DNA of 34,378 nucleotides from an uncultured Armatimonadota bacterium. Its GTDB lineage: Bacteria > Armatimonadota > Armatimonadia > Armatimonadales > Armatimonadaceae. A program made the translations under genes and the position numbers. Numbering within the stretch: position 1 is the stretch's first letter; every line of letters starts with the position of its first letter. The notes beneath the pieces are model-generated. The model did no database searches, was not told where the DNA came from, and saw only the letters and a list, made by a program, of their open reading frames with translations. The stretch spans positions 1 to 34,378 of the forward strand of contig CAIVZM010000068.1 in assembly GCA_903910385.1 (NCBI GenBank), given 5' to 3'. Below, piece by piece: positions 1 to 22,832 of this stretch.

Positions 1-2
1 AA

Positions 3-356
3 AAACTCAACGTCAAGAATATGTCCTCTTCTCCCAAACCAAAACAGGATGAAGAGACAGGCGAGTATCTCCCTAATGGAGCCAGCCGTAAGGGGGGCTT
101 GAACAAAAGTATTTTAGACGCCTCCTGGTCGCAGTTTCGTACTGTTCTTACGCAAAAGGCTGCAAGCGCCGTTCGTAAGATAGTAGAAGTCAATCCTGCC
201 TATACCAGTCAAATTTGTTGCCGTTGTGGCAATATCGCTAAAAAACCATTGAAGCAGCGCTGGCATTTCTGTCCAATATGTTCGTTGTCGTTAGATAGAG
301 ACACCAACGCCGCTTTCAATATTCTTGCTCTGGGACTACAGAGCGTTGCAGATTAA
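3..356 (+). CDS. tnpB: TnpB (IS605 OrfB-type) RNA-guided nuclease, C-terminal part
   Basis: The frame is open to the left edge, so the 5' part lies outside the window. What remains is the end of the RuvC-like nuclease: a KxGLNKSILDASW-type segment, a treble-clef zinc ribbon with two CxxC pairs (CCRCG and CPIC) and the closing DRDTNAAFNI motif that carries the last RuvC aspartate. TnpB proteins cut DNA guided by an omega-RNA made from the element's right end. No premature stop or missing cysteine is seen in this part, so the protein may be intact. The transposase TnpA is not visible, and whether the element is autonomous cannot be judged. Confidence 0.9.
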   Translation, partial: KLNVKNMSSSPKPKQDEETGEYLPNGASRKGGLNKSILDASWSQFRTVLTQKAASAVRKIVEVNPAYTSQICCRCGNIAKKPLKQRWHFCPICSLSLDRDTNAAFNILALGLQSVAD

Positions 357-398
357 TCTGCAAAGAAGCCGCCGAATTTATTCGTGCGGAGTAGTCAC
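346..398 (+). mobile_element. Right end of an IS605/IS200-family element
   Basis: An 18-bp perfect palindrome, TTGCAGATTAATCTGCAA (346-363), spans the tnpB stop codon. Directly after it, positions 369-389 form a hairpin: CCGC pairs with GCGG and CGAA with TTCG, with one unpaired T at 385. A subterminal hairpin with an extrahelical T is the feature TnpA recognises in IS200/IS605 elements. The likely cleavage tetranucleotide TCAC lies at 395-398, about 9 nt past the hairpin. This segment would also be the 3' scaffold of the omega-RNA. The exact boundary is inferred, because the left end is not in the window. Confidence 0.7.
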
Positions 399-399
399 T

Positions 400-1416
400 A
401 TGAAAATCAGTCACGCACTTGCGCTTACCTTGTTTTTGTGCAGTCTTTCTCTGGGATCCCAGAGTCATGCGCAGTCGGAAGCGAGTACATCGTCAGGAGG
501 CGAGTATAAACCTGCAGATCGAAAGGCGAGTCGACAGGTCAAAGCTGTACTGAACTACCTTCTCAACCAGAGAGGCAAAGGGTTTATCAGCGGTCAGACG
601 GATCTGGCGGATGCGGAATGGATAAAGGCGAACACCGGAAAGTATCCCGCTATTCTGGGTATGGACTTTATGCATGTTCCCAAACGCATGGGCGGAGATG
701 TCAAAGACACCGCAACAGCAATCGACTGGTATCGCCAGAAGCGGGGGTTGGTCACTTTCCAGTGGCACTGGTCTTCGCCGTCCGGAGCGGAGAACCCCGG
801 TAGCGGTTTCAATACCAGAAACACCACATTCGATCTCGCCGCTGCGCTCAGCGACCCGAACTCATCGGACTACAAGGGACTGATTGAGGACATCGACGAT
901 GTCGCCGCAGAAATGAAAAAGATGTCGGACGCTCACGTTCCTATCCTGTTCCGACCTTTACATGAGGCGCAGGGGCGATGGTTCTGGTGGGGCGCCAAGG
1001 GTTCGGAGAACTGCGTCAAACTCTATAAAATCATTTTCGACAGGATGACCCGGCATCATCGGCTTCATAACCTTATCTGGGTATGGACGGCTTATCCCGC
1101 CTCACAGGGCAAGGGCGACCCCGCTGTCTGGTATCCGGGGGACGATTTTGTGGACATTATCGCAAGCGACTACAACGAAAAGAAGCAGGACTACGATGAT
1201 CTCGTCCGCCTGACGGCAGGAAAAAAGATGGTCGCTCTGGCGGAAACGATGAACGCACCGGATCCCAGCAAGGTACTGAACTCCACACCGTGGGTCTACT
1301 GGGTAACATGGGCTCGGCGCGACTGGAACAAGCGTAGCCCGGATGATATGAAGCAGGCTATAGCGCATCCACTCACCATCACGCTCGATCGCCTTCCCGA
1401 TGTCAGTAAATGGTAA
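400..1416 (+). CDS. Secreted GH26 family endo-beta-mannanase-like glycoside hydrolase
   Basis: The protein has 338 aa. Residues 1-24 form a signal peptide (MKISHA, hydrophobic core, cleavage near SHA-Q). The GH26 fold follows: SGQTD near residue 64, an RPLHEAQGRWFWW segment with the acid/base Glu189, and the ALAETMN segment with the likely nucleophile Glu282. GH26 enzymes mostly hydrolyse beta-1,4-mannans outside the cytoplasm. I chose the ATG at 400 because the signal peptide begins there; an upstream ATG at 325 would add residues encoded by the insertion sequence. The Shine-Dalgarno GGAG (388-391) lies inside the right end of the IS, so the element has replaced the native 5' region. Substrate choice (mannan or another beta-glycan) cannot be decided from the sequence. 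Confidence 0.88.
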   Translation: MKISHALALTLFLCSLSLGSQSHAQSEASTSSGGEYKPADRKASRQVKAVLNYLLNQRGKGFISGQTDLADAEWIKANTGKYPAILGMDFMHVPKRMGGDVKDTATAIDWYRQKRGLVTFQWHWSSPSGAENPGSGFNTRNTTFDLAAALSDPNSSDYKGLIEDIDDVAAEMKKMSDAHVPILFRPLHEAQGRWFWWGAKGSENCVKLYKIIFDRMTRHHRLHNLIWVWTAYPASQGKGDPAVWYPGDDFVDIIASDYNEKKQDYDDLVRLTAGKKMVALAETMNAPDPSKVLNSTPWVYWVTWARRDWNKRSPDDMKQAIAHPLTITLDRLPDVSKW

Positions 1417-6908: not shown

Positions 6909-7979
6909 ATGTCCGTCTCATTCCCTGTCGCTGATCACTACGGATTGAACCGTATTTTGCTGGTAAAGCTATCCTCCCTCGGGGATATCGTGCATGCTTT
7001 GCCTTTACTGGAGGCGCTACGGGCAGGGTTGGGCAAGCAGGCGCACATTGCCTGGGCGATTCGCGGAAAATTCGCGGAATTGCTGGAGGGAAATCCGTTT
7101 CTGGATGCGGTGTACCCCCTCGAAGACAGCAGTCCTGAGTCCATTCTACGCTTTGGCAAGACCCTGCGTAACCAGCGGTTCGACGTCACTCTCGATACAC
7201 AGGGGCTTTTGGTTTCCGGATTCATCACCCGCCTTTCCGGCGCCCCCTTACGCATCGGCATGGATGCGAACCGTGAGGGTAACGCCTTTTTCCTGACCCA
7301 TCCTGTGGTTGGCGCAAAACAGCGAATTCACATGGTGGATAAACTGATGGGGTTCTGTAACGCGGTCGGGATTCCCCCTCTCCCGGTAGCGCCGCAAATA
7401 TATCTGGTGGAGGGCGAGAAACGTACCGCCTCAGCATTACTCGCCGATGCGAAGCGAAAGGGGCCGGTCATCGGTTGTATTGTGGGGGCGTCCACACCGG
7501 AAAAAACGTATCCGGCGACGCAATGGGTGGAGGTAGCGCTACAGTTGGCGAATCAGGGAGCGCAGGTCGTTCTACTTGGAGGAACAAAAGAAGCGGAAGC
7601 GGCGGCGGAAATCACCGCACAATCGAAGGGAGCTATAACAGTAAATCTGGTGGGGAAGACGCCGGTGCGAACGCTGGCTTCGACGCTCGCTCTCTGCAAT
7701 ATTATTGTCGGCGGGGATTCCGGGCCAACCCACCTTGCAGTAAGCGTCGGAACGCCCGTCGTAGGTTTGTATGGCGTTACGGATCCCGTGCGAACCGGGC
7801 CGCAATGGGGGTCTGCTATCTCCCTGGTTCTGGATTATGCCGAAAAGGATGCTCCGTCCGAAACGCGTCGTCCCCGTCATTCGTCGCTGACGGACGCACT
7901 GTCCCGCATCCCGTCAAAAGCGGTTTCCGATGCCGCTATGGAACTTCTGCGTCGCGCATCTGTCGAGAAGGCGTCATGA
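6909..7979 (+). CDS. Glycosyltransferase family 9 (heptosyltransferase-like), first of six
   Basis: The protein has 356 aa and a GT-B fold. The N-terminal motif ILLVKLSSLGDIVHALPLLEAL is the GT9 signature. The C-terminal donor-binding half has GCIVGASTPEKTYPATQW and VGGDSGPTHLAVSVGTPVVGLYG. GT9 enzymes such as WaaC/WaaF add ADP-activated heptose to lipopolysaccharide core on the inner-membrane cytoplasmic side. Unlike four of its siblings it lacks the C-terminal Cys-rich CxPC...CM tail and instead ends like WaaC. The stop overlaps the next start (ATGA), so translation is coupled. The actual sugar is unknown. Confidence 0.87.
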   Translation: MSVSFPVADHYGLNRILLVKLSSLGDIVHALPLLEALRAGLGKQAHIAWAIRGKFAELLEGNPFLDAVYPLEDSSPESILRFGKTLRNQRFDVTLDTQGLLVSGFITRLSGAPLRIGMDANREGNAFFLTHPVVGAKQRIHMVDKLMGFCNAVGIPPLPVAPQIYLVEGEKRTASALLADAKRKGPVIGCIVGASTPEKTYPATQWVEVALQLANQGAQVVLLGGTKEAEAAAEITAQSKGAITVNLVGKTPVRTLASTLALCNIIVGGDSGPTHLAVSVGTPVVGLYGVTDPVRTGPQWGSAISLVLDYAEKDAPSETRRPRHSSLTDALSRIPSKAVSDAAMELLRRASVEKAS

Positions 7980-8971
7980 ATCACGAGCGTACTCGACGCC
8001 TGCTGGCGGTAAATCTGAATTATATGGGGGACGGACTGTTCACCACTCCCGCTCTTGCTGCATTACGCGCACGTTTTCCCGATACTACTATCGATGTTCT
8101 GGCAGGAGAACGCGCTGCGGCGATCCTTCGCGACAACCCGCATATCGACCGGTTGATTACCCGGCCGCCACGTGGCGGAGCCGGACGATCCGCCAACCTC
8201 TGGAAGACGCTACGAGAAGGCGAATATGACGGCGTCATTCTGTTCCAGAGCACAATTGTCAATGCAGCGTTGGCGGCGCTCGCTCAGATACGGGTGCGTG
8301 TCGGCTTCGATCAGGATGGTTGCGGTTCCTTTTTGACGCATCGTGTCAAGGAACGGTCAGCAGGCGAGCATGTCGTGGATGCCTACTTACGATTGGCGGA
8401 AGCCATCGGCGACCCTCCCTCGAATGAGATATCCTATCCGCTGACGATTGCAGTTTCCGCTCAGGATACGGCGTTCGCGGATGATTTTTTCCGGAAGTGG
8501 TCGGAAAAGCCGACGGTGGGTATGGTCATCGGTGCGACACGGGCGCAAAAGCGTTGGCCAGAAACCTACTTCGCGAGACTTGCCGATAAACTCTGGAACG
8601 CCGATGGAATCGGATGCGTTCTGCTGGGCGGTTCTGAGGAGACGGAAGCCGCCAGGCGCATTCAGTTAGAAGCGACTTCCCCTCTGGTGTCCGCAGTCGG
8701 GAAAACGACGGAAAAAGAGCTTGCCTCAATCGTCGCACAATTGCAGGTAGTCATTTCTGGCGATAGCGGCCCCCTTCATATCGCCGCCGCCATGAAGACG
8801 CCGGTTGTCGCGCTTTTCGGTTCTACTGACCCGGCGGAAACCGGCCCCTGGCCTCTCAAGGCTCCGTCTTTGGCGGCGGTCACGCCGCGCCGGCGACAGT
8901 TCTTTACGATGCCCTGCACTGCGCTCCCTGTCGCAAGCGCCCCACCTGTGATGACCGGTTCGATTGTATGA
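7976..8971 (+). CDS. Glycosyltransferase family 9, second copy, with a frameshifted C-terminus
   Basis: The protein is 331 aa as read. It starts with LLAVNLNYMGDGLFTTPALAALRARFP and has VISGDSGPLHIAAAMKTPVVALFGSTDPAETGPW. After about codon 300 the reading turns into an unrelated low-complexity tail (TPRRRQFFTMPC). The expected GT9 ending, TVLYDALHCAPC followed by a CM-type Cys motif, is present in the frame of the next ORF from about 8893. One base is therefore missing between about 8860 and 8895 relative to an intact gene. The start overlaps the upstream stop by ATGA. The donor site is intact; the terminal Cys-rich tail would be lost if the shift is real. Confidence 0.8.
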   Translation: MNHERTRRLLAVNLNYMGDGLFTTPALAALRARFPDTTIDVLAGERAAAILRDNPHIDRLITRPPRGGAGRSANLWKTLREGEYDGVILFQSTIVNAALAALAQIRVRVGFDQDGCGSFLTHRVKERSAGEHVVDAYLRLAEAIGDPPSNEISYPLTIAVSAQDTAFADDFFRKWSEKPTVGMVIGATRAQKRWPETYFARLADKLWNADGIGCVLLGGSEETEAARRIQLEATSPLVSAVGKTTEKELASIVAQLQVVISGDSGPLHIAAAMKTPVVALFGSTDPAETGPWPLKAPSLAAVTPRRRQFFTMPCTALPVASAPPVMTGSIV

Positions 8972-10197
8972 ACGTTCTGACACCGGAACGTGTCTACGAT
9001 GCAACCTGCGATTTCCTGAATATCGAACGGAAGCGATTACGACTGCCCATTGCTCCGATACGACAGACTCAGGAGACGAACGCTATACAGTCAAAGCCTC
9101 TTCTCGTCCCTTCCGTCATGCGATCTGGCGAACCCCAAATCCGTCGTGTCTGCGTGATTCGTTTCGGCGCAATGGGCGATATTTTGATGACGACACCCGC
9201 CATCCGGGCGCTGCATGAGCAACTCCAACCGGAATTCATCGACTATATCGTCGGACGGAACAATATCGATGCGATATCAGGAATACCCTACCTGCGACGG
9301 ATCATTCCCTATGGGCCACGTGGCGAAGATATGCGCCCGCATAATCTTGCCTCATTCCTGAAATCGTTGCGGGAGGAAAAATACGATCTCTGTATCAATT
9401 TCCAACCCAGCCTGAAGACATTCATCATGCTCCATGGCACAGGAGCCGCACGACGTATCACATACAATAAAGATACGTCAGTGCAACCGGAGACAGGCAA
9501 AGTACGTCATTTCATTCAGGACTTCGCCTGCGAACTTCGGAGCATCGGCGTCACCCTGCACGATCCGACAATGAATTTTTTCGTCCCGGAAGAAGCGCGA
9601 TCCACAGTCTCAGACCTTCTGGCGGCGGAAGGTATCGCCCCGGAAACTCCCTTTCTGGCGGCGAATCCGGGAGGAACCCGCATTATTAACCGCTGGCCGC
9701 CGGAGCGTTACGTCGAATTTCTTGATCGTATCGCTCAGGAGATGCCGAACCTCAGGTTGGTGCTCACGGGCGGACCGGACGACAAAACACGGGCGGATTT
9801 CATCGCAGCGACCGTCCGACCGGAAACACGGTTGGTCAATCTGGCAAACCGTCTTAAAATCAAGGAAATGGGCGCCTTGCTCTGCTTTGCAAAGGTTTTT
9901 GTCACGCCGGATACCGGGCCGATGCACATCGCTTCCGCTCTGGGAACTCCTATGGTCGTATTGTCCGGTGCGGCGGACCCAAATCGCTCCGGCCCGATGT
10001 CACGGCGCGATCTGGTCGTTATCAACCGGGAATTGCCCTGTGTTCCCTGCCGGGAAAGGTACTGCAAACGGGGTGATATCGCCTGCATGACCCAGATGCC
10101 TGTGGAGTGGGTAATGAACGCAGTGCGACGAAGGCTGATTATCGAAACGACGGACGAATTACAGAGAAACAGGCACGGGGAGGCGTTAACGCATTGA
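8968..10197 (+). CDS. Glycosyltransferase family 9, third copy
   Basis: The protein has 409 aa if the ATG at 8968 is used. The GT9 core begins only near residue 60 ([24 protein letters not shown]) and continues to [23 protein letters not shown] and the Cys-rich tail [17 protein letters not shown]. Residues 1-20 ([17 protein letters not shown]) match the end of the preceding GT9, not a normal N-terminus. The first ATG close to the real core is at 9118, without a clear ribosome-binding site. The ORF may therefore be the second half of a GT9-GT9 fusion broken by the upstream frameshift, or may start at 8968 by ATGA coupling. The enzymatic core looks complete. Confidence 0.82.
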
Positions 10198-10673
10198 TTC
10201 TGGATCGGGAAGCGATAGGAAGACGTTCGGCGGAGTTGCAGGCGGAAGGCAAGCGTGTCGTCTTTACGAATGGCGTTTTTGATTTGTTGCATGTCGGGCA
10301 TGTCCGCTATTTGCAGGCGGCTCGCGCTCTGGGCGATGCCCTACTGATAGGAGTAAACAGCGATGACTCAGTACGCCGCCTGAAAGGGCCGACACGTCCT
10401 TTGAATCTGGATCAGGAACGCGCCGAAGTGCTGGATGCCTTGCATTGCGTGGACTCGGTGTGTATTTTCGAAGAAGATACCCCGTTGAATCTAATAGAAA
10501 TCATTCGCCCGAATGTTCATGCGAAAGGAGGCGATTACGCATCGCCAGACGCGCTTCCCGAAACGCCTCTTGTCCGTTTTCTGGGCGGCGAAGTCGTTAT
10601 CCTTCCTATAGTAGAGGGTCGTTCCACCACAAGGTTGATTGGCATCATGCAGGAAGGGAAAGAATCGCGATGA
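10194..10673 (+). CDS. HldE C-terminal (RfaE2)-type nucleotidyltransferase
   Basis: The protein has 159 aa, the size of stand-alone RfaE2 domains. It shows the cytidylyltransferase-like fold with [19 protein letters not shown] (the HxGH nucleotide-binding motif), [39 protein letters not shown] and a closing GRSTTRLI. In HldE this domain adenylylates heptose-1-phosphate to ADP-heptose, the donor of GT9 enzymes, which fits its place inside a GT9 operon. I chose the TTG at 10194: it overlaps the previous stop (TTGA) and has GGGGAGG about 9 nt upstream, while the longer reading begins inside the GT9 gene. The kinase half of HldE is not in the window. Confidence 0.83.
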
Positions 10674-11884
10674 TGAGCGGGCGACGCCTGTTGAATATCC
10701 TGCAGGTAGGTTCGGGCTTCCCCGGTTGGGGCGGTACGGAACTGCATTTGCTGAATCTCGCCCAGCAGTTGGCGGAACGTGGACATCGGGTGACAGTAAC
10801 CGCTCGTCCCGAAAAATTCGTAGAGCAGGAAGCGCTCAAGCGTGGTCTGACAACCTTTCCTATCACAGTCCGACGACAATGGGATTTTAAAGAAGCCAGG
10901 CGCATTCGCGAGTTGATACGCCGTGAATCGTTTGATGTCGTCCATGTGCACTGGAGCACTGATTATGTTGTCACGCCGCTGATTGCGCGTCAATTGGGCG
11001 TCCCGGCGGTAGTCATGAGCCGACATTCCCCCTATGCCCTGAAATCGTCTCTGGGTAAATTTCTATATGAGAAGGTTCTGTTCGACCGCATCATCGCGCT
11101 ATCTGGGTCAGTGCGTCGAACGCTGGTCGGGCAGGGAATCCATCAGGATCGGGTAGTCACTATCCACCATGGGACGGACACCCATGCATTCCGCCATCTG
11201 ACCCTCTCACCCGAATCGGTGCGGGAGGAATGGGGCATTCCTCCCGGCGCCTTCGTCGTGGGATTGGCGGGACGAATCGCTGAAGAAAAAGGCTGGAGGA
11301 CTTTCCTGCAGGCAGTCGCCCGGGAACACTCTCGCTTGAGCAAAAGTAGTGTCGTGACGGATACCGATAGAGTTTCGTCCTCCTCAACTGGAGTAATGTC
11401 AGCAACAAACGCCCCACTTTATGCCGTCCTGATCGGTGATGGCCCGCAGGCGGAACTGGCAAAGGAAACCACCCGAGAACTTGGCATTGCGGATCAGGTC
11501 ATTTTCGCGGGCTTCCGTTCCGATGTGAACAATGCGATCAACGCACTGGATACGCTGGTTCTAGCATCCGTCTGGGAAGAGCCCTGTGCCGCCGTCGTTC
11601 AGCAAGCGATGGCGTTAGGTAAGCCCGTTATCGGAACCAATATCGGGGGAACGCCGGAAATGGTGGCGGATGGCGAAACCGGAATTCTGGTTCCCCCTGG
11701 CGATGATGTCGCGCTGGCGGCGGCAATCCGTGACCTTGCCTGTGAACCACGAAAACGCGCCTATATGGGAGCCTCAGGCGCGGTGCGGGCGGACGCGCTG
11801 TTTACCCTTTCCCGAATGACCGACAACAATGAAGCGCTTTATCTTAAAATCCTGCAAGAAAAACAGGAACCGCCTCGTATATGA
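10670..11884 (+). CDS. Glycosyltransferase family 4
   Basis: The protein has 404 aa and a GT-B fold. The N-terminal domain shows [32 protein letters not shown] and [11 protein letters not shown]. The C-terminal Glycos_transf_1 domain has [58 protein letters not shown] and GILVPPGD; the [11 protein letters not shown] segment corresponds to the EX7E donor motif. Between [13 protein letters not shown] and YAVLIGDG lies an unusual Ser/Thr/Val-rich insert of about 30 residues. The start at 10670 overlaps the preceding stop (ATGATG); longer readings run through the nucleotidyltransferase gene. It is a retaining transferase acting in the same glycan pathway, and its sugar is unknown. Confidence 0.87.
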
Positions 11885-12933
11885 GTGTGATGCTCCACCA
11901 TCTGAAACGGATGCCGCACTATGCAAATATTATTGCGAGCGCCTTACGCTTCCGCTTTCATTTGCGTCAATATCGTGGGAATCCGTTGATTCTGGTGGAT
12001 CGATTCGGGGGAATGGGCGATGTGATCAGTTGCTTTCCATTACTTAGCGCTATTCGCGCCAAGTATCCGAAGGCTTATATCGTTTTCCGAACCACCTCCG
12101 CATTGATAGAATTACCCTCTCTATCCGGTTATGTCGATGAAGTAGTGGAAGATGAGCGTTGTGATGAGGTTCCCCGCTCTATCCGGGTTCGTGATATCGA
12201 CTTAAATTCGTTCGATTTTCATTTTGCGCCTCAGCATACAACTGATCCGGGTGTTACCCAGAAGGATCGACTCAGCCATATTGTGGATGCGTTTTGCAAT
12301 CAATATGATCTTGTTCCCGCTTCGCGTCAACCGCATATCGCGCTTCCCGAGACTTATCGCGTTCGATTGAGTAACGAAATCCATGCCGTGCGAACTGGAA
12401 GCGGCCCTATCATTTTTATACACTGCGGCCCTTCCTGGCCTGTCAAGGAGTGGGCGCCCTCCGCATGGGCGGAATTGACGCGACGGTTTCATTCCGAACT
12501 GGATGCGACAGTTATTCAGGTTGGCGCAGATTGGCATTATGACGCCCGCTATGATGCTGTCCCCCGAATTCCCGGCGCAATTCACTGGATTGGTTCTCTG
12601 ACGGTAACAGAAACGGCGGCGGCTGTGGCAGGAGCGGACTTACTTGTCGGCATTGATTCTGGTCTGCTGCATATCGCAGGTGCGGTTGGTACGCCATCGA
12701 TAGGTCTTTTCGGCCCCACCTCTCCCCATTTTCATCTGCCTCTTGAGACGGAATCGGTCGCCGTACATTCCAACGTATCCTGCCTTGGATGTCATCATCT
12801 GCCAAAACCGCTTCACTGGAAAACCAGTTGTCCACAGGAAATCGCCTGTATGCGCGAGTTGCAGGTAGAATGGGCGCTTGATGCGAGTCGGAGCATGTTG
12901 CAAAAACATCAAAAGATGAGGGAGGAGTTTTGA
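11881..12933 (+). CDS. Glycosyltransferase family 9, fourth copy
   Basis: The protein has 350 aa. After a roughly 35-residue basic N-terminal extension come PLILVDRFGGMGDVISCFPLLSAI, IIFIHCGPSWPVKEWAP, LLVGIDSGLLHIAGAVGTPSIGLFGPTSPHF and a long Cys-rich tail (CLGC ... CPQEIACM). It diverges more from the other copies: the donor loop reads IDSGLLH in place of GDxGPxH, and its spacing in the Cys tail is wider. The start overlaps the GT4 stop (ATGA). The family role is transfer of heptose or a similar sugar to a growing lipid-linked core. The altered loop may mean another donor. Confidence 0.83.
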   Translation: MSVMLHHLKRMPHYANIIASALRFRFHLRQYRGNPLILVDRFGGMGDVISCFPLLSAIRAKYPKAYIVFRTTSALIELPSLSGYVDEVVEDERCDEVPRSIRVRDIDLNSFDFHFAPQHTTDPGVTQKDRLSHIVDAFCNQYDLVPASRQPHIALPETYRVRLSNEIHAVRTGSGPIIFIHCGPSWPVKEWAPSAWAELTRRFHSELDATVIQVGADWHYDARYDAVPRIPGAIHWIGSLTVTETAAAVAGADLLVGIDSGLLHIAGAVGTPSIGLFGPTSPHFHLPLETESVAVHSNVSCLGCHHLPKPLHWKTSCPQEIACMRELQVEWALDASRSMLQKHQKMREEF

Positions 12934-14141
12934 GTCTTCCGTTGTTGGCAGGAAATTCTGCGCCTCTCTTTCGTCCTTCTCACACGCCGGTTAACCAGAG
13001 AATCGCTCGCTGCCCCGTTCCCCGTGATCAGGCATCCAAACGCATATTGATTATGCGCGCAGGAGCTCTGGGCGACATTTTGATGGCGACTCCCTTACTA
13101 GAGTCGCTCCGCAATGCAAACCCGGACGCTCATATTACATGGATAGTCGAAGATACCCAAGCCGGAGCGATAGAAGCGAATCCGCATCTGGATGAGATCA
13201 TTCTGTGGAACTCCAAATACTGGAAACGGATGTTACGCCGACTGAATTACCCGCTCTGGATTTATCGCTCCCTGCTATTCCGAAAGGCGTTACAGGAACG
13301 AAACTACGATATCTTTATCTCCCTCCAACCGGAGGAATGGTCTTTATTGACGAGACATTGTGGCGCAACGGAGCGAATCGGGATTTTCGACACCTTCGCA
13401 CGTTACTATGGCAAGCCCTACTCGGGTCCGAACGCACACTATTTCACCCACTCCTATAATGGCCCGGAACGCGAAGAGCATCGTACCAACCAGTATCTTC
13501 TGGCTCTGGAGGCGCTGAATATCCCCCCTGTCCCCGATAAAAGAATGCGACTCGGGTATACCGCCGAAGACAGGGCAAAGGCGAAGGCGTTTCTTTCCGC
13601 TCAGGGCATTTCTGACGAAAACCCTTTCGTTATTCTGGTGACGCAAACCACCTGGCCGACCAAATGCTGGCTCGCCGAACGATTCGTCGCTTTAGCCGAC
13701 CGATTGAACGCACAGGGCTTCAAGGTATTATTATCCGGCAGCGCCGCCGAAAGGGAACCGGTGTCCCAAATCGCCCGAAAGATGGCTAGCCCCCCTGCCA
13801 TGACGACAGGAGAGTTATCGTTCCGCGAACTGGCGGCGGTAATCGACCGGGCGTCAGCGCTCATCAGTGGCGATACCGGGCCAATGCATGCCGCCGCCGC
13901 TCTGGAAACTCCTTTCGTGTCGCTCTTCGGAGCGACCGCACCGCAATGGTACGCCCCGCTCTCCGGGCATGGGGTATCGCTGATTCATCCGATTCCGTGC
14001 GGCCCGTGTGACCGAAAAAAATGTGTGAATGTCGGCGCTGATTACGAGAAATGTATGCGATTGATCACGGTAGAGGAAGTCTATGAAGCAACGCTTCAAA
14101 CCATCGCGCGTTCCACCGTCAAGGAGACAGCATACGAGTGA
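12930..14141 (+). CDS. Glycosyltransferase family 9, fifth copy
   Basis: The protein has 403 aa. A roughly 38-residue N-terminal extension precedes RILIMRAGALGDILMATPLLESL. The donor half shows ILVTQTTWPTKCW, LISGDTGPMHAAAALETPFVSLFGATAPQWYAPL and the tail CGPCDRKKCVNVGADYEKCM. It begins with TTG at 12930, overlapping the previous stop (TTGA) and preceded by a strong GGAGGAG. It is most like the following copy: both have a KYWKRMLRRLNYPLW / SWRRLWRKANYPAW segment near residue 100, pointing to a recent duplication between the two. Confidence 0.85.
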   Translation: MSLPLLAGNSAPLFRPSHTPVNQRIARCPVPRDQASKRILIMRAGALGDILMATPLLESLRNANPDAHITWIVEDTQAGAIEANPHLDEIILWNSKYWKRMLRRLNYPLWIYRSLLFRKALQERNYDIFISLQPEEWSLLTRHCGATERIGIFDTFARYYGKPYSGPNAHYFTHSYNGPEREEHRTNQYLLALEALNIPPVPDKRMRLGYTAEDRAKAKAFLSAQGISDENPFVILVTQTTWPTKCWLAERFVALADRLNAQGFKVLLSGSAAEREPVSQIARKMASPPAMTTGELSFRELAAVIDRASALISGDTGPMHAAAALETPFVSLFGATAPQWYAPLSGHGVSLIHPIPCGPCDRKKCVNVGADYEKCMRLITVEEVYEATLQTIARSTVKETAYE

Positions 14142-15220
14142 AGCGGATCGGCATCATTAAACTCTGGGCGCTGGGCGATATCGTCATGGCGACTCCCATG
14201 CTCACGGCTATTCGAGCGAAGTATCCGGAATGCCGAATCTCCTGGGTAGTCGATGAAGCGCACGGCGAGATCCTGCACGGTCACCCGGATATCGATGATC
14301 TCGTTATTCTGGATACCGGTTCCTGGCGTCGTCTCTGGCGCAAAGCGAATTACCCGGCATGGATAACCAGATCGCGCGAAATACGGCAAATGCTGGCGGC
14401 AAAGGAATGGGATGCGGTCATCAACTGCCACCCAGACAAGTGGTTCACTGCCATCCTTTGCCCGGCGCCGCTTCGGATAGGATTGTACCCATCACCAACC
14501 TTGCCTACTCTTACGCCACGGCTTTATACCCATGTCATTCCTGACCCACGTCCCCAGATTCATGCGACCCGTCACTACCTGCAGGCGACTCAGGCGCTGG
14601 ATTGCCCGGACGCTTCTCTGCGCCTGACACTGGGAGAAACGCCGGAAGAGAGTTCCTTCTTCGAAGAATTTCAACAACGTCACGGCAGTACGCCCTACGC
14701 GGCGATTCTTCCCTTTACGACAGCGGAAAACAAATGCTGGGAGCCGGAACGCTATGCCGCGCTTGCCGATACACTATGGAAAAATCATTCCTTGCAATGT
14801 ATTCTGCCGCATAGCCCGAAGGATGAAGAGGCTGCCCATAGGATCGCCTCGCAATGCAAAGACAGCGATAGTATTCGCCTTGTACGCACGAACCTGCGTC
14901 AATATGTCGCTCTCTTGCGTCGGGCGGCGCTGGCGGTAAGCGGCGATACGAGCGCCTTACATCTCTGCGCGGCGCTGGATACTCCTTACGTTTCCCTCTT
15001 TGGACCTACAGACCCGCGCCATCTCGCTCCCCTTTTTACCGGGGAAGGACGAGGCGAAATCCTTCTGCCCACCGTCTCCTGCGCTCCCTGCAACAGCACG
15101 AATTGCCGTAATGCCGTTTTCCGCGCTTGCATGAAAGAACATTCGGTGAGTGAGGTGTCGGAGCGGTGCTTAAGGGTACGTAAATCCGCTATCTCTATCC
15201 CGCTTTCAGGATCAAGGTAA
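14138..15220 (+). CDS. Glycosyltransferase family 9, sixth copy
   Basis: The protein has 360 aa. Without any extension it opens with MKRIGIIKLWALGDIVMATPMLTAIRAKYPECRISWVVDE. Later come AAILPFTTAENKCWEPERY, LAVSGDTSALHLCAALDTPYVSLFGPTDPRHLAPL and the Cys-rich CAPCNSTNCRNAVFRACM. In the donor loop GDTSALH replaces the usual GDTGPMH. The GTG start overlaps the upstream stop (GTGA). It is the last gene of the operon; its stop lies 2 bp from the stop of the convergent permease gene, with no terminator hairpin between them. Confidence 0.85.
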   Translation: MKRIGIIKLWALGDIVMATPMLTAIRAKYPECRISWVVDEAHGEILHGHPDIDDLVILDTGSWRRLWRKANYPAWITRSREIRQMLAAKEWDAVINCHPDKWFTAILCPAPLRIGLYPSPTLPTLTPRLYTHVIPDPRPQIHATRHYLQATQALDCPDASLRLTLGETPEESSFFEEFQQRHGSTPYAAILPFTTAENKCWEPERYAALADTLWKNHSLQCILPHSPKDEEAAHRIASQCKDSDSIRLVRTNLRQYVALLRRAALAVSGDTSALHLCAALDTPYVSLFGPTDPRHLAPLFTGEGRGEILLPTVSCAPCNSTNCRNAVFRACMKEHSVSEVSERCLRVRKSAISIPLSGSR

Positions 15221-18395: not shown

Positions 18396-19406
18396 TTGGT
18401 TCATTTAGCGGTTAACCGGGATACACTGAAACTAGAAAATATTAAACCAGTTGGATTGACGATGTATATATGGGGGCGCACAGCTATAACTATTACGTCG
18501 TCAACAATGGCGCAAACGACCGTGTTTTATCTGCCCGACGAGCGGGGCAACACGGCGATGCGTCTGGACAGGAACGGCGTGATTTTGTCCGCCCATGTCA
18601 CGGACGCCTTTGGAGCGACCAAGACCAGCGATTATGTCGGTTCCTCGTCGGACGATCCGTTTGCTGGCTTTGGCGGTTCACTGGGTTATATGCGCGAGTC
18701 CGGTCTTGATTTGTACCGTTGCGGCTTGCGCTTTTACGATGTCGCCAATGCCCGCTGGCTGACAAGAGACCCCATCGGATATGACGGAGGGCAAAACCTC
18801 TACGGATATGTCTCCGGTAACCCTGTCATGGGCGCGGATCCTTTCGGGACGCAAGACCAGACGAACAGCGTCACTAACGCCAGCGGAATGCGAACGCAAC
18901 TCTCTATCCTGCGAGAGACAGATTCCACCCCGATTCGGCTCGGAGATGCCTCAAGAATCATCGGAATAACGGCGGCGCAACAGTGGTGGCAACGGTGGGG
19001 GCAATGGACAAATCAGCAATGGCAACGATTCGGAAACAACCTCTCCAATATCTTCGGTGGAGGAGGTAGTAGCGGTGGTGGGGCGCCTCAGCGGTTATTC
19101 ACTTCCAAAGACCCCCTCGTTGCCCAAGTAGCTAATGCGATTGAAAGCCGCTATCCTGGTCATGTTATCGGCGTGAATCAGAAGATAGGTGGACAGGAGA
19201 TTGACATAGTACTACGGAATGCGTTAATTGAAGTGAAACAGGGAGGGGCAGGCTTGACGAGTCAAGTCACAGCCCGATTGAATCTAGGTTACCCGGTACT
19301 TGCTTACTCACCAAAGCTTGGTGGGCAAGCGATTCAGGGAATAAACAATTGCGGCGGCATCGGCACGAATGACCTCAAACTGCTTATTGATGTGGTAAAA
19401 CCTTGA
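18396..19406 (+). CDS. Truncated Rhs-core protein with PD-(D/E)XK nuclease-like toxin tip (tip 1)
   Basis: The ORF encodes 336 aa. Residues about 42-150 are the Rhs-associated core (TTVFYLPDERGNTAMRLDRNG ... SGLDLYRCGLRFYDVANARWLTRDPIGYDGGQNLYGYVSGNPVMGADPFG). There is no signal peptide and there are none of the many YD repeats of a full Rhs protein, so this is an orphan C-terminal piece. The tip (about 151-336) has a Gly/Ser linker and then E250, D270 (GGQEIDIV) and E279-x-K281 (LIEVK), the spacing of a restriction-endonuclease-fold nuclease. Such tips are DNA- or RNA-cutting toxins freed from the Rhs shell. The TTG start at 18396 is only formal; an ATG at 18462 is also possible. Expression is doubtful without a parent gene. 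Confidence 0.72.
   Translation: MVHLAVNRDTLKLENIKPVGLTMYIWGRTAITITSSTMAQTTVFYLPDERGNTAMRLDRNGVILSAHVTDAFGATKTSDYVGSSSDDPFAGFGGSLGYMRESGLDLYRCGLRFYDVANARWLTRDPIGYDGGQNLYGYVSGNPVMGADPFGTQDQTNSVTNASGMRTQLSILRETDSTPIRLGDASRIIGITAAQQWWQRWGQWTNQQWQRFGNNLSNIFGGGGSSGGGAPQRLFTSKDPLVAQVANAIESRYPGHVIGVNQKIGGQEIDIVLRNALIEVKQGGAGLTSQVTARLNLGYPVLAYSPKLGGQAIQGINNCGGIGTNDLKLLIDVVKP
18515..18847 (+). repeat. Rhs core repeat, copy 1
   Basis: About 333 bp that recur almost unchanged at 21462, 22874 and, shortened, at 24195. The copy runs from the AACGACCGTGTTTTAT segment to the DPFG codons, where the tip begins. Confidence 0.9.
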
Positions 19407-19458
19407 CACGTTGACGCTTCTGAAGGCGTCGTCTGCATTCATACAAAAAAGAGGTATC

Positions 19459-19464
19459 TACAAT
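19459..19464 (+). promoter_or_regulatory. Possible -10 element of the tip-1 immunity candidate
   Basis: TACAAT ends exactly 10 nt before the ATG at 19475, the same geometry as other promoters in the window. No good -35 is seen. Confidence 0.35.
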
Positions 19465-19474
19465 TAGTTACAAC

Positions 19475-19885
19475 ATGCTGGTTCTCTCTTCCCGTATTGG
19501 GATACCCAGGGCGAGCGTGAATGACCTTTACAACGCCTTAAAATCCGCCACGAATAAATCCTCTCATCATGGGTGCTTTGTGGTGGATTTCATTGACCGC
19601 CATCAACTCGGGCAAGCTAACGATGCTCTATCTTTACTCGAATCTTGCCGATGGATACCAGAGACGGACAACGAAGGAAATATTACGGAACTGAACTTTG
19701 CAGGTGAAAAATTAGGAGATGAAGATTGCCTGTTTGCCACTATCGCCCCTTATGTAAAGTCAGGCAGCTATATTATCGTCGCACTGGATAACGGCGCTCT
19801 ATGGCGTTGGCTTTTTGAAGATGGCGCGGTCGTCAAGCAAATCGGGAGACCTGTTTTCGACGGTCACGAAAGCGGCGTAGGTTAA
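19475..19885 (+). CDS. Hypothetical protein, candidate immunity protein for the nuclease tip
   Basis: The protein has 136 aa, is soluble and acidic, and has no signal peptide. I do not recognise a named family with certainty. The C-terminal half (CLFATIAPYVKSGSYIIVALDNGALWRWLFEDG) has the look of small immunity-type proteins with a Gly-Ser-Tyr-Ile / Trp-Arg-Trp pattern. It lies 68 bp after the nuclease tip on the same strand, the usual place for the cognate immunity gene. An AGAGG purine run is too far upstream (about 20 nt) to be its ribosome site, which fits a leaderless transcript. Confidence 0.6.
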   Translation: MLVLSSRIGIPRASVNDLYNALKSATNKSSHHGCFVVDFIDRHQLGQANDALSLLESCRWIPETDNEGNITELNFAGEKLGDEDCLFATIAPYVKSGSYIIVALDNGALWRWLFEDGAVVKQIGRPVFDGHESGVG

Positions 19886-19954
19886 CAATGGGTTAAAAGT
19901 TTCCGACAACGTGAGTGGCTTCACCGGGATTACTTAAGTAATATAAATGAGAAA

Positions 19955-20341
19955 ATGGAAAGCGATGTTACGGGCAAAGTGACCCGGAAATATCGGATTG
20001 TTCTTGCGGTTGTCTTAACGCTGGGTTTGACCCTCTACGTCGCGTTTGCCTTCGCCATGAAAAGCGTCGCGGAAGCCCAATACGCTATCAAAATTGAGCA
20101 GGACTATCTGCCCAACCGGCGCCATGATACCGGTCAATGGCCCGACTCTCTTGACGGAATCGAAGATTATATGCGTTTGCACGGATACGGGTATGATTAC
20201 CTGAAAATGACTCGTGACGCCCGCCCCAGCATTATCGTCACCTACCAGGACCGCGAGGAGATGCGGGGAGAAATAGTGTTCTCGTGGAGGTGGTTACCTC
20301 AAGGCCGCCTGCCGTTCGTCTCGCGGAGGGACTACTACTAA
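19955..20341 (+). CDS. Small membrane-anchored hypothetical protein
   Basis: The protein has 128 aa with one N-terminal transmembrane helix (about residues 14-36, IVLAVVLTLGLTLYVAFAFAM). The soluble remainder, rich in Tyr, Asp and Arg (QWPDSLDGIEDYMRLHGYGYDYL, then IVTYQDREEMRGEIVFSWRW), would face the periplasm if the helix inserts as a standard N-in anchor. I recognise no family. A TAATAT hexamer ends 10 nt before the ATG. It lies between immunity-type genes and could be another immunity protein or a leftover of a lost tip. Confidence 0.5.
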   Translation: MESDVTGKVTRKYRIVLAVVLTLGLTLYVAFAFAMKSVAEAQYAIKIEQDYLPNRRHDTGQWPDSLDGIEDYMRLHGYGYDYLKMTRDARPSIIVTYQDREEMRGEIVFSWRWLPQGRLPFVSRRDYY

Positions 20342-20423
20342 GGTAGGGCGGGACGTTGAGGCGCACTGTTGAGCAGGGTGCGTCCCCCCGGAACGATGAG
20401 AAACCCACTGAATATTAACCAAT

Positions 20424-20711
20424 ATGGATAACGTCAAGTATCTTGAGCAGTGGTATGCTTCCCGTTGTAACGGGGATTGGGAACATGGTTTTGGAATTCA
20501 ACTTCAAACCCTGGATAATCCAGGTTGGTGGCTCAGGATAGATTTGAACGGGACGCCATGGGAGGATGCCTTCCTGCCGACGGTGCGGCTTGACCGGGGA
20601 GATCGGGACTGGATGAACTATAAAATTGAGGGTGGTTTATTTGAGGCTTCGGGAAGCGTGGACAAACTGGATGAAATGATTCAAGCATTTCGGAATTTCG
20701 TCGAGAGATGA
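20424..20711 (+). CDS. Imm53-family immunity protein (orphan)
   Basis: The protein has 95 aa. The pattern LEQWYASRCNGDWEHGFGIQLQTLDNPGWWLRIDLNGT, followed by DWMNYKIEGGLFEASGSVDKLDEMIQAFRNFVE, is what I know of the Imm53 family, small soluble antidotes in polymorphic-toxin loci. The family usually follows a toxin tip directly. Here no tip precedes it, only two other small genes, while a decayed Rhs core follows. It may protect against a toxin of neighbouring cells, or its toxin has been lost. No clear ribosome-binding site is seen. Confidence 0.82.
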   Translation: MDNVKYLEQWYASRCNGDWEHGFGIQLQTLDNPGWWLRIDLNGTPWEDAFLPTVRLDRGDRDWMNYKIEGGLFEASGSVDKLDEMIQAFRNFVER

Positions 20712-20849
20712 CGCTCTGAACACGGTAGGAATATGCTTTGATAAGATAAGGTGGGAGGCCATGCGGTTCGCCTTACGGCATGAATCAATCCTCCTTTATA
20801 TAAGATAAATAAATTATAATCGTATAAAAAGAGTGCACCTAGATTGGCA

Positions 20850-20950
20850 TGGCTACTTCCGACCCTTATGCGGGCATGGGAGCGCAGTACGGCTATTAGA
20901 AGGCGGCGACTCGACACTGTACCATTGCGGTTCCGTTACTGCGACTTCAT
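20850..20950 (+). pseudogene. Decayed Rhs core remnant of a different lineage
   Basis: Reading from 20850 gives GMATSDPYAGMGAQYGY then a stop, matching the DDPFAGFGGSLGY block of the intact copies. After one or two shifts the following bases read GGDSTLYHCG and then, with another gap, RYY/CDF, matching ESGLDLYRCGLRFYD. The bases differ widely from the four near-identical copies, so this fragment came from another Rhs gene and has decayed. The rest of 20712-20987 shows no gene and is AT-rich around 20790-20830. Confidence 0.55.
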
Positions 20951-20999
20951 GTTGTAAAAACGAAAGGATGCGTAGAAATCCCTGATTGTGCCGTTACCT

Positions 21000-21440
21000 A
21001 TGAGCGCAACGTATTCAATCAATTTGGAAACATGCTACGATTACGCGTTTTCGGAAGTAATCAACGTCTTGCTTAAAGCGGGGGTGATCTGGAAAACCAC
21101 GGTGGATGGGCAAAAACTCTATGACTATGGGGAATCATCCGAGGTAGCGTTGGACTGTTTGATGTCCGATCAAGATTCTTCCGTCATCCTAAGTGAGTTG
21201 GACACCCAATTTCTGGCAGGTCAAAGCGTTGCCATCTTTATGTCCATTAACGACAGATACTATTTCAGTATCATTAAGCATAGCAAGCGAGAGTTTACTA
21301 TATTGATTGATGCCGGTCGACCTTTGTTGACTTCGACTTGGATGACCGATAGTAGCGCGATTATGAAGGAGATAATCACTCCCCTCTTTACTGCGGGAAT
21401 TTGTCTCCTCGAAATAACAACATCTGATAGTAATACATAA
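21000..21440 (+). CDS. Hypothetical protein, possible orphan immunity protein
   Basis: The protein has 146 aa from the ATG at 21000; a GTG at 20988 would add four residues (MPLP). It is soluble and acidic with alternating predicted strands and helices (DYAFSEVINVLLKAGVIW, SVAIFMSINDRYYFSIIKH, FTILIDAGRPLLTS). I recognise no family. It follows the decayed Rhs remnant, which could be the core of its former toxin partner, and directly precedes the second intact core repeat. No clear ribosome-binding site is visible. The gene is more likely real than a chance frame, given its length and composition. Confidence 0.5.
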   Translation: MSATYSINLETCYDYAFSEVINVLLKAGVIWKTTVDGQKLYDYGESSEVALDCLMSDQDSSVILSELDTQFLAGQSVAIFMSINDRYYFSIIKHSKREFTILIDAGRPLLTSTWMTDSSAIMKEIITPLFTAGICLLEITTSDSNT

Positions 21441-21461
21441 CAGCCGGTTAGGCGAGCGCTA

Positions 21462-21788
21462 TTTTATGCCTGCCCGACGAGCGGGGCAATACGGCGATGC
21501 GTCTGGACAGGAACGGCGTGATTCTGTCCGCTCATGTTACGGACGCCTTTGGAGCGACCAAAACCAGCGACTATGTCGGTTCCTCAACGGACGACCCGTT
21601 TGCCGGCTTTGGCGGTTCACTGGGTTATAGTCGAGAGTCAGGACTTGATTTGTACCGATGCGGCTTACGCTTCTACGATGTCGCCAACGCCCGCTGGCTG
21701 ACACGAGACCCCATCGGATACGGCGGGGGGCAAAACCTCTACGGATATGTCTCCGGTAACCCTGTCATGGGAAGCGACCCACTTGGGC
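21462..21788 (+). repeat. Rhs core repeat, copy 2
   Basis: Near-identical to copies 1 and 3. Two extra bases (GC, 21468-21469) after TTTTAT put the first codons out of frame, so the upstream junction is broken. The copy ends at the DPLG codons. Confidence 0.9.
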
Positions 21789-22300
21789 TTTATCCTCCTG
21801 CTACGGTGAACGAATACTTAAATCAGTTAGGCGACGGCATTAATCAGGAGATAAGTAGTTACTTCTCAGGCTTCACACGAAACACCAGTTTCCTATCAGA
21901 TTGGTTTTTCGGGTTAGGTCAGGACCACAGGAGATATCTTGATCGTAGTCCCGAGAGTTTAGAGTTACGGAACTCGCTCGCAGGAGAACAGATTGCGTTC
22001 GCTATCGCGCAGGGAAAAAATAGTGGGAGCATAAGGACTTTTTCCGCTTTCATCAATTCGATCCAGCAGCCAGGAAACGCGACTCAGTTTCAAGTAGGAG
22101 CTTTTCGTTGGCAACGTATTGATGAAAACGGTCACATATTTGTACGTGCATATAACGTCGCATCATTTGACTCGTTCTGGTATCATATACCCGGCTTGTT
22201 TGGGCAGAATCCCCTTTGGAACGGGACTTTTGATCGTGCCCGTTGTGGCTTCGGCCCCAATGGCAATGTTTATCAGGAATTCCAGTGGACGATACGTTGA
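21497..22300 (+). CDS. Truncated Rhs-core protein with unrecognised toxin tip (tip 2)
   Basis: The ORF encodes 267 aa. Residues 1-97 are Rhs core (MRLDRNG to GSDPLGL). The tip (98-267) matches nothing I can name. It has an amphipathic first part (VNEYLNQLGDGINQEISSYFSGF), a helical EQIAFAIAQGKNSGSIRTFSAFINSIQQ stretch, and an aromatic beta-rich end (FQVGAFRWQRIDENGHIFVRAYNVASFDSFWYHIPGLFG ... GNVYQEFQWTIR). No metal-cluster or known catalytic motif stands out. The stop overlaps a TTG that opens the ankyrin gene, typical of a toxin-immunity pair. The Met is an internal one; the 5' part was lost by recombination. Confidence 0.68.
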   Translation: MRLDRNGVILSAHVTDAFGATKTSDYVGSSTDDPFAGFGGSLGYSRESGLDLYRCGLRFYDVANARWLTRDPIGYGGGQNLYGYVSGNPVMGSDPLGLYPPATVNEYLNQLGDGINQEISSYFSGFTRNTSFLSDWFFGLGQDHRRYLDRSPESLELRNSLAGEQIAFAIAQGKNSGSIRTFSAFINSIQQPGNATQFQVGAFRWQRIDENGHIFVRAYNVASFDSFWYHIPGLFGQNPLWNGTFDRARCGFGPNGNVYQEFQWTIR

Positions 22301-22779
22301 CAACACCAATTCAGAAATCTCATAAGCGGAAGATAAGTGCTGTAATCGCTCTCATTGTAGCAGCGGCGTTATCGTTCGGGTACGTCGTACTTGCGGGAAT
22401 TCTTTTGATCCGCGCTGCTGAACTGGGTCAATCCGATTCCGTAAAACGACTGTTGCAAATGGGCGCTTCCGTGAATGCGGTTGACCCTGAACTGCGCTCA
22501 ACCCCGTTAATTGCCGCCTCAGAAAACGGGCATAATGACGTTGTTCTGATTTTATTATCTCAAGGAGCTAATGCTAACCAACAAGACGCCCATGGCGACA
22601 CGGCATTAATGCTCGCTTCAGCGAATGGTTATATGCCCGTGGTCCAATCTCTGATAAACCATGGGGCGAATCCTGAAATGAAAAACCAGGATGGCGAAAC
22701 TACCCTGGATTTGGCGAAGCAAGGAAACTACGCCGACATAGTCGCCTACCTGAATCGCCACCGCTATCGCCGGGAATAG
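22297..22779 (+). CDS. Membrane-anchored ankyrin-repeat protein, candidate immunity protein for tip 2
   Basis: The protein has 160 aa from the TTG at 22297, which overlaps the tip-2 stop (TTGA). A basic start (KSHKRK) is followed by one transmembrane helix (about 13-33, ISAVIALIVAAALSFGYVVLAGIL). Then come about four ankyrin repeats: LIRAAELGQSDSVKRLLQMGASVNAVD, TPLIAASENGHNDVVLILLSQGANANQQD, TALMLASANGYMPVVQSLINHGANPEMKN and a short last one. Ankyrin proteins are known as immunity proteins in polymorphic-toxin loci. The helix suggests that it meets its toxin at or beyond the membrane. An upstream in-frame ATG (22243) lies within the toxin gene and is less likely. Confidence 0.75.
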   Translation: MTTPIQKSHKRKISAVIALIVAAALSFGYVVLAGILLIRAAELGQSDSVKRLLQMGASVNAVDPELRSTPLIAASENGHNDVVLILLSQGANANQQDAHGDTALMLASANGYMPVVQSLINHGANPEMKNQDGETTLDLAKQGNYADIVAYLNRHRYRRE

Positions 22780-22832
22780 ACAATCCGCCTCCTGCTCCGC
22801 CGTCGGATACCGTCAAAGCGTCCGTTCCGGCA

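What the first reader, a model, noticed from the sequence alone, without database searches (positions are those of the whole stretch)
346..420. IS605-type right end fused to the start of a secreted mannanase gene
The probable IS boundary (TCAC, 395-398) lies one base before the ATG of the GH26 gene, and the Shine-Dalgarno GGAG (388-391) is supplied by the element's hairpin arm. The omega-RNA read through the right end would take its guide from the first codons of this gene. The insertion therefore creates the translation start region and sets the TnpB guide on the signal-peptide coding sequence.
Basis: partly seen in the sequence, partly recalled or inferred. Interest (0 to 1): 0.5.

Follow-up and report, generated by a model that had tools for sequence, protein, structure and literature searches.

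The report
Jumping-gene end abutting mannanase start codon
A common type of bacterial jumping gene has landed one base before the start codon of a secreted mannan-digesting enzyme, so the ribosome-binding-like sequence in front of that enzyme now belongs to the jumping gene; the anatomy is real, but it looks like a chance insertion of a known kind.

Summary
The window's own genome has 6 right ends of this element; likeness stops exactly after TCAC (window 398), followed here by one T and the ATG (400-402) of a GH26 mannanase gene. All 6 left ends found begin after TTAT. TTAT and TCAC each match a tetranucleotide at the foot of a hairpin by the pairing rule published for IS608, so this is an IS200/IS605-type end. 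GGAG (388-391) belongs to the element. None of the 6 possible pre-insertion junctions has a Shine-Dalgarno motif at usable spacing, so the insertion added one. But the ATG is probably native, and the hairpin is predicted to bury half of GGAG; an effect on translation is unproven. A guide on the first codons follows from how such elements work. The left half probably lies on contig C43, where tnpB is internally deleted, so a local nuclease is doubtful. In passing: two other copies sit in stop codons, and the right end re-forms the stop without changing the protein (CAA TAA to CAG TGA; AAA TAA to AAG TGA). A survey of 106 other junctions showed no phase bias. New member of a known kind.

The parts
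1..356 (+). 3' part of tnpB (zinc ribbon, DRDTNAAFNI motif, stop TAA 354-356); the contig begins inside the gene
   Evidence: Pfam Cas12f1-like_TNB 74.3 bits, cut-off 26.3; NCBIfam guided_TnpB 94.8 bits for this fragment, just under the cut-off of 100, and 172.8 bits for the longer C41 copy
346..363 (+). palindrome over the tnpB stop codon (346-352 with 357-363); candidate omega-RNA stem
   Evidence: fold; one of 7 pairs changes on both sides among 6 copies, 90.5% of cells paired, shuffles do as well: weak
365..368 (+). GAAG, candidate right guide (G_R) at the foot of the right hairpin
   Evidence: fits C_R TCAC by the IS608 rule (GAAT/TCAA; passages of PMC5934647), compared by eye
369..389 (+). 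subterminal right-end hairpin, 8 pairs with a bulged T385
   Evidence: identical in 6 of 6 copies; fold
388..391 (+). GGAG, element-borne Shine-Dalgarno-like motif, 8 nt before the ATG; G388 and G389 predicted paired
   Evidence: also in 7 of 8 readable right ends of relatives
395..398 (+). TCAC, right cleavage tetranucleotide, last bases of the element
   Evidence: likeness among 6 copies ends here
399..414 (+). first 16 nt of flank: predicted omega-RNA guide, i.e. target next to TTAT in the empty allele
   Evidence: inferred from ISDra2 (about 16 nt; passages of PMC8612924)
400..1416 (+). secreted GH26 beta-mannanase gene, 338 codons
   Evidence: PF02156 211 bits; 6hpf E 8e-73; signal peptide judged by eye

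Best explanation
Window 1-398 is the right-hand part of an IS200/IS605-type element without tnpA in cis (a solo-tnpB, IS1341-like element). Shown by sequence: six copies in this genome share two exact ends, TTAT|CGATTC on the left and GGAGTAGTCAC| on the right. Inferred: a Y1 transposase acting in trans inserted it as single-stranded DNA 3' of a TTAT that happened to lie one base before the ATG of a GH26 mannanase gene. The start codon and everything from T399 on stayed native; everything upstream was displaced. The ribosome now meets the element's GGAG 8 nt before the ATG, where the old leader had no motif at usable spacing, and transcription must come through or from the element. An omega-RNA running off this end would carry the first codons as guide and mark the empty allele (TTAT + TATGAAAATC...) for cutting, but only if an intact TnpB is made elsewhere, because the local tnpB is probably internally deleted. 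That the landing adjoins a start codon is most likely chance plus survival of harmless insertions.
For: Six right and six left ends with base-exact limits. IS608 rule (C_L TTAC/G_L AAAG, C_R TCAA/G_R GAAT; passages) is met by TTAT/AAGA and TCAC/GAAG, each guide at a hairpin foot. No right flank of 6 begins with TTAT, so no target duplication. TnpB families. An IS200-type Y1 transposase gene on contig C48, 68.6 bits against a cut-off of 55. The +1 base is T in 5 of 6; +1 preferences are published for IS608 and ISDra2. Shine-Dalgarno score 4 with the element, 0 in each of the 6 possible empty sites. Motif use in this organism: score 4 or more in 149 of 400 called genes, 334 of 4000 random 20-mers (the gene caller gave a small bonus for the motif when choosing starts). 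Left half on C43: right ends C68 and C22 are each other's nearest (4 differences in 200; all other pairs 6-15), left ends C43 and C75e share a leader variant absent from the other four, and C43 carries PhyH and GH30 genes where C68 has GH26 and PhyH.
Against: G388 and G389 are predicted 97-99% paired, so the motif may be weak. 150 of 400 called genes score 0, so the native gene may have needed none. No promoter-like site in 1-1600, where shuffles give 1.3. The left end lies on another contig and the C43 pairing is indirect: over the first 100 bases C43 is as near to C67 as to C75e (4 differences each), and GH30 is not next to GH26 in the relatives looked at. No expression data.
Confidence: 0.85

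Rival explanations
1. The insertion matters to the host: read-through from the element plus its GGAG switched on or re-tuned the mannanase, and the insertion was kept for that reason.
For: The element supplies GGAG 8 nt before the ATG where none of the 6 possible old leaders has a motif; the 338-codon mannanase frame is intact.
Against: Half of GGAG is predicted buried in the hairpin; no promoter-like site found; no called gene is interrupted by any of the 6 copies, as expected of neutral survivors; no expression data.
Confidence: 0.2
2. The right end is a translation-friendly cassette kept by selection: GGAG serves genes starting just downstream on the + strand, and its reverse complement GTGA re-forms a stop codon in phase for genes ending at the junction on the - strand, so the element lands harmlessly at gene edges.
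For: 2 of 6 copies (C72, C22) sit in TAA stop codons and re-form Gln-stop and Lys-stop; 1 of 6 at a start codon. Three of six at gene edges: P 0.006 (TTAT) or 0.03 (TTATT) among non-intragenic sites (post hoc). GGAG in 7 of 8 readable right ends of relatives.
Against: Among 106 other right-end junctions, 12 minus-strand ORFs stop at the right-end TGA and 18 run past it; 10 of 30 are expected by phase alone. Only 1 of 106 has a called start within 0-4 nt. GGAG and TCAC are also explained by hairpin and cleavage-site needs. Two of six at stops alone is P 0.05 or 0.15 among non-intragenic sites.
Confidence: 0.12
3. Assembly error: the contig start was stitched wrongly to the GH26 gene.
For: The window is a whole contig whose start lies in a repeat.
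Against: The join lies 398 bases inside the contig; the element's end is the same in 6 copies with 6 different flanks; a chimera exactly at the true end would be a coincidence.
Confidence: 0.03

Closest known systems
IS608 (ISHp608), IS200/IS605 family
   Same: Subterminal hairpins, target tetranucleotide kept on the left only, guide/cleavage pairing rule, preferred +1 base, no target duplication
   Different: TTAT/TCAC instead of TTAC/TCAA; no tnpA in the element
ISDra2 TnpB and its reRNA (omega-RNA)
   Same: TnpB with TNB domain and zinc ribbon; right end just behind tnpB, so flank would become guide
   Different: Only the last 117 codons are in the window; the local tnpB is probably internally deleted; guide RNA not observed; TTGAT there, TTAT here
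PATEs, core-deletion derivatives of IS605-type elements (Haloquadratum; passages of PMC3119063)
   Same: Two of six left ends (C43, C75e) lead into internally deleted tnpB; the other four contigs end too early to tell
   Different: The copies here still carry a 3' part of tnpB
GH26 endo-beta-mannanase (6hpf)
   Same: Residues 37-305 align, E 8e-73
   Different: Leader replaced by an insertion element

Membership tests
IS200/IS605 family (tnpB-only, IS1341-like) | Subterminal hairpins and no target duplication | tested here: met
   Right hairpin folded, left hairpin CCCC..GGGG read by eye; 0 of 6 right flanks begin with TTAT
IS200/IS605 family (tnpB-only, IS1341-like) | Fixed short target 5' of the left end | tested here: met
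   TTAT in 6 of 6 left ends
IS200/IS605 family (tnpB-only, IS1341-like) | Guide tetranucleotides matching cleavage tetranucleotides | tested here: met
   AAGA/TTAT and GAAG/TCAC, pairs 1-2, 2-1 and 4-4, compared by eye with IS608
IS200/IS605 family (tnpB-only, IS1341-like) | Y1 transposase (TnpA) | tested here: inconclusive
   None in cis: in C43 tnpB starts at element base 137; three Y1 matches elsewhere in the genome, the C48 one an IS200-type TnpA; no proof that it moves this element
TnpB RNA-guided endonuclease | TNB domain, zinc ribbon and DRD motif | tested here: met
   Pfam; NCBIfam over the cut-off for the C41 copy, 94.8 of 100 bits for the window fragment
TnpB RNA-guided endonuclease | Complete RuvC catalytic set in an intact gene | tested here: inconclusive
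   No complete tnpB of this element was seen in the assembly; C43 and C75e copies are deleted
TnpB RNA-guided endonuclease | omega-RNA with flank-derived guide and TAM-dependent cutting | not testable with these tools
   needs RNA sequencing and a cutting assay
GH26 beta-mannanase | GH26 domain alignable to a solved mannanase | tested here: met
   PF02156 211 bits; 6hpf alignment; enzyme activity not tested

The most novel reading that the evidence does not exclude
The ends of this IS200/IS605 lineage act as translation punctuation. The target TTAT|T, read on the other strand, is the end of a gene (a Gln, Lys or Glu codon, then TAA), and the right end's GTGA rewrites it as the same amino acid plus TGA; on the other side, GGAG seven bases from the end offers a ribosome site to any gene starting 0-4 nt downstream. 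The element could then land at either edge of a gene without harm, and this would be a selected property rather than a by-product.
Probability: 0.12. Interest if true: 0.6.

Novelty: new member of a known kind. Interest (0 to 1): 0.33.

Why it matters
It is a base-exact case where the end of a TnpB element forms a host gene's leader, so the same few bases are hairpin arm, ribosome-site candidate, cleavage site and omega-RNA scaffold. If the gene-edge pattern held in larger data it would help explain how these elements persist in compact genomes, and it can be checked by a simple survey of stop-codon phase at right ends.

Tried and rejected
Synteny for the left half: none of the 5 GH26 homologue loci L045-L049 has a GH30 or PhyH match to our flank ORFs (one ORF at the far end of C43, 10 kb from the junction, matches an ORF upstream of GH26 in L046 at 42% over 120 aa, weak support at most); in 41 genomes no GH30 place listed is near a GH26 place. 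Empty site in a relative: not available. Rfam at gathering cut-offs: no match in the window. Stop-phase survey: no enrichment, 12 of 30 junction-touching minus ORFs. Its limits: 99 of the 106 junctions are from viral contigs and 7 from relatives; targets of those elements were not checked; ORFs were taken by length, which misses cases such as L152, where C-ATG follows the right end and opens 160 codons; 58 candidates were dropped before the count (30 without hairpin or tnpB, 20 duplicate flanks, 8 short flanks). The chance figures were computed after seeing the pattern, with a home-made gene caller over 520 kb (404 genes). Covariation in the right end is weak: 299 of 500 shuffles have as many doubly changed pairs. 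Papers: the searches listed no title or abstract start on stop-codon re-formation or Shine-Dalgarno supply by IS605 ends; passages of PMC2775950 describe IS605 stem-loops at 3' ends of Borrelia lipoprotein genes, one overlapping the last 8 nt of a coding region, the nearest thing found; passages of PMC7290912, PMC3119063 and PMC4227781 were also seen.

Full report
What is there. The window is the whole of contig C68 (34,378 bases) of a 4.47-Mb, 84-contig genome. The five best homologues of its GH26 protein found in named genomes are from Armatimonadota MAGs. The contig opens inside the 3' part of a tnpB gene (stop 354-356), followed by a hairpin (369-389), GGAG (388-391), TCAC (395-398), one T, and the ATG (400) of a GH26 mannanase gene.

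The boundary. The genome holds six right ends (C68, C75, C72, C41, C23, C22) and six left ends (C67, C65, C29, C43, C16, C75), all within 600 bases of a contig edge, as expected of a repeat that breaks assemblies. The right ends are alike up to TCAC (398) and unlike after it. The left ends all read TTAT|CGATTCTC. No right flank begins with TTAT, so there is no target duplication. The base after the right end is T in 5 of 6.

The type. TTAT with AAGA at the foot of the left hairpin, and TCAC with GAAG at the foot of the right hairpin, satisfy the IS608 pairing rule (TTAC/AAAG and TCAA/GAAT; passages of PMC5934647). The protein is TnpB; the window fragment alone scores 94.8 bits against NCBIfam's cut-off of 100, the longer C41 copy 172.8. 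No tnpA lies between the left end and tnpB: in C43 tnpB starts with GTG at element base 137. Three Y1 matches lie elsewhere in the genome; the one on C48 is an IS200-type TnpA and could act in trans, which is inference.

The leader. With the element, GGAG stands 8 nt before the ATG. In each of the six possible empty junctions (left flank ending TTAT, plus T399) no Shine-Dalgarno motif lies at 4-12 nt spacing; this does not depend on which left end is the true partner. In this organism 149 of 400 called genes score 4 or more and 150 of 400 score 0. So the insertion supplied a motif, but its earlier absence was not abnormal. The fold of 300-480 pairs G388 and G389 (unpaired probability 0.01 and 0.03) and leaves A390 (0.59) and G391 (0.38) partly free. 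No promoter-like site was found in 1-1600. GGAG was not made by this insertion: 7 of 8 readable right ends of relatives have it (11 loci examined, 3 unreadable).

The left partner. Right ends C68 and C22 differ at 4 of 200 positions, all other pairs at 6-15. Left ends C43 and C75e share a leader variant that the other four lack, although over the first 100 bases C43 is as near to C67 as to C75e (4 differences each). C43 ends with PhyH and GH30 genes, the latter 180 bp before the left end, and C68 continues with GH26 and PhyH. I pair C43 with C68 at an estimated 0.7. The C43 copy has an internally deleted tnpB whose frame stops after 51 codons. Against C41, 19 bases are missing between the end of C43 and the start of C68, which would make an element of about 746 bp (inference). 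C75e is also internally deleted; the other four left-end contigs end too early to tell (160-254 bases of element). Core-deletion derivatives of IS605-type elements are known as PATEs (passages of PMC3119063).

The guide. In ISDra2 about 16 nt of flank form the guide and the retained target motif is the TAM (passages of PMC8612924). By analogy the guide here would be 399-414: T plus the first five codons. This follows for any insertion of this kind. With a broken local tnpB it would need TnpB from elsewhere, and no complete tnpB of this element was seen in the assembly.

Stop codons. In C72 and C22 a minus-strand gene ends at the junction. Since the target was TTAT in all six left ends, the genes ended CAA TAA (C72) and AAA TAA (C22) before insertion; they now end CAG TGA and AAG TGA, the stop coming from the element's GTGA. 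The protein is unchanged. With TTAT|T as target every such case is (N)AA TAA to (N)AG TGA, which keeps Gln, Lys or Glu. In the 520-kb sample 58 of 3124 TTAT sites (1.9%; 6.2% of non-intragenic ones) and 33 of 720 TTATT sites (4.6%; 11.6%) are of this kind, while 70% and 60% are intragenic. Two of six at stops: P 0.005 or 0.03 over all sites, 0.05 or 0.15 over non-intragenic ones. Three of six at gene edges: 0.006 or 0.03 over non-intragenic ones. All these are after the fact. No called gene is interrupted on either side of the six copies, against P 0.0007 or 0.004 for none of six being intragenic, so removal of harmful landings is visible.

The survey. Among 106 right-end junctions (99 viral contigs, 7 relatives) 12 minus-strand ORFs stop at the right-end TGA and 18 run past it, no significant excess over one third; 1 of 106 has a called start within 0-4 nt. 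The caller missed at least one candidate: in L152 C-ATG follows the right end and opens 160 codons, not shown to be a gene. I take the stop-codon landings as harmless survivors and the start-codon landing as chance.

Verdict. Observation confirmed; interpretation partly supported. An ordinary IS200/IS605-type insertion in an unusual place.

Noticed in passing
L132, junction at 9786 (C72, right end on the minus strand); L135:241-245 (C22): Two other copies of the element sit in the stop codon of a gene on the opposite strand; the right end re-forms a stop in phase and the last amino acid is unchanged.
   Followed up: yes
L128:10547-10875 (C43); L130:9779-10000 (C75): Left ends leading into internally deleted tnpB: deletion derivatives of the element.
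   Followed up: partly
L152 (G016 C110), right end on the minus strand: Another genome's right end of this lineage is also followed by one base and ATG, opening 160 codons; whether it is a gene was not tested.
   Followed up: partly
window 18396-23768: Three ORFs share an RHS-type end (YLPDERGNTAMRLDRNG ... GNPVM) followed by different C-terminal tips, with small ORFs between: looks like an RHS tip array with candidate immunity genes. Naming is from memory, no search was made.
   Followed up: no
window 6909-15220: A run of genes whose translations look like heptosyltransferase-type glycosyltransferases (from memory, not searched).
   Followed up: no
L136:1474-1938 (G000 C48): A lone IS200-type Y1 transposase gene (NF033573, 68.6 bits, cut-off 55), a candidate for moving the tnpB-only elements in trans.
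   Followed up: partly
L126 (C65 left flank) and L132 (C72 right flank): Both carry large secreted metalloprotease-like genes with HExxH..GLRHNF (read by eye); they may be the two sides of one insertion.
   Followed up: no
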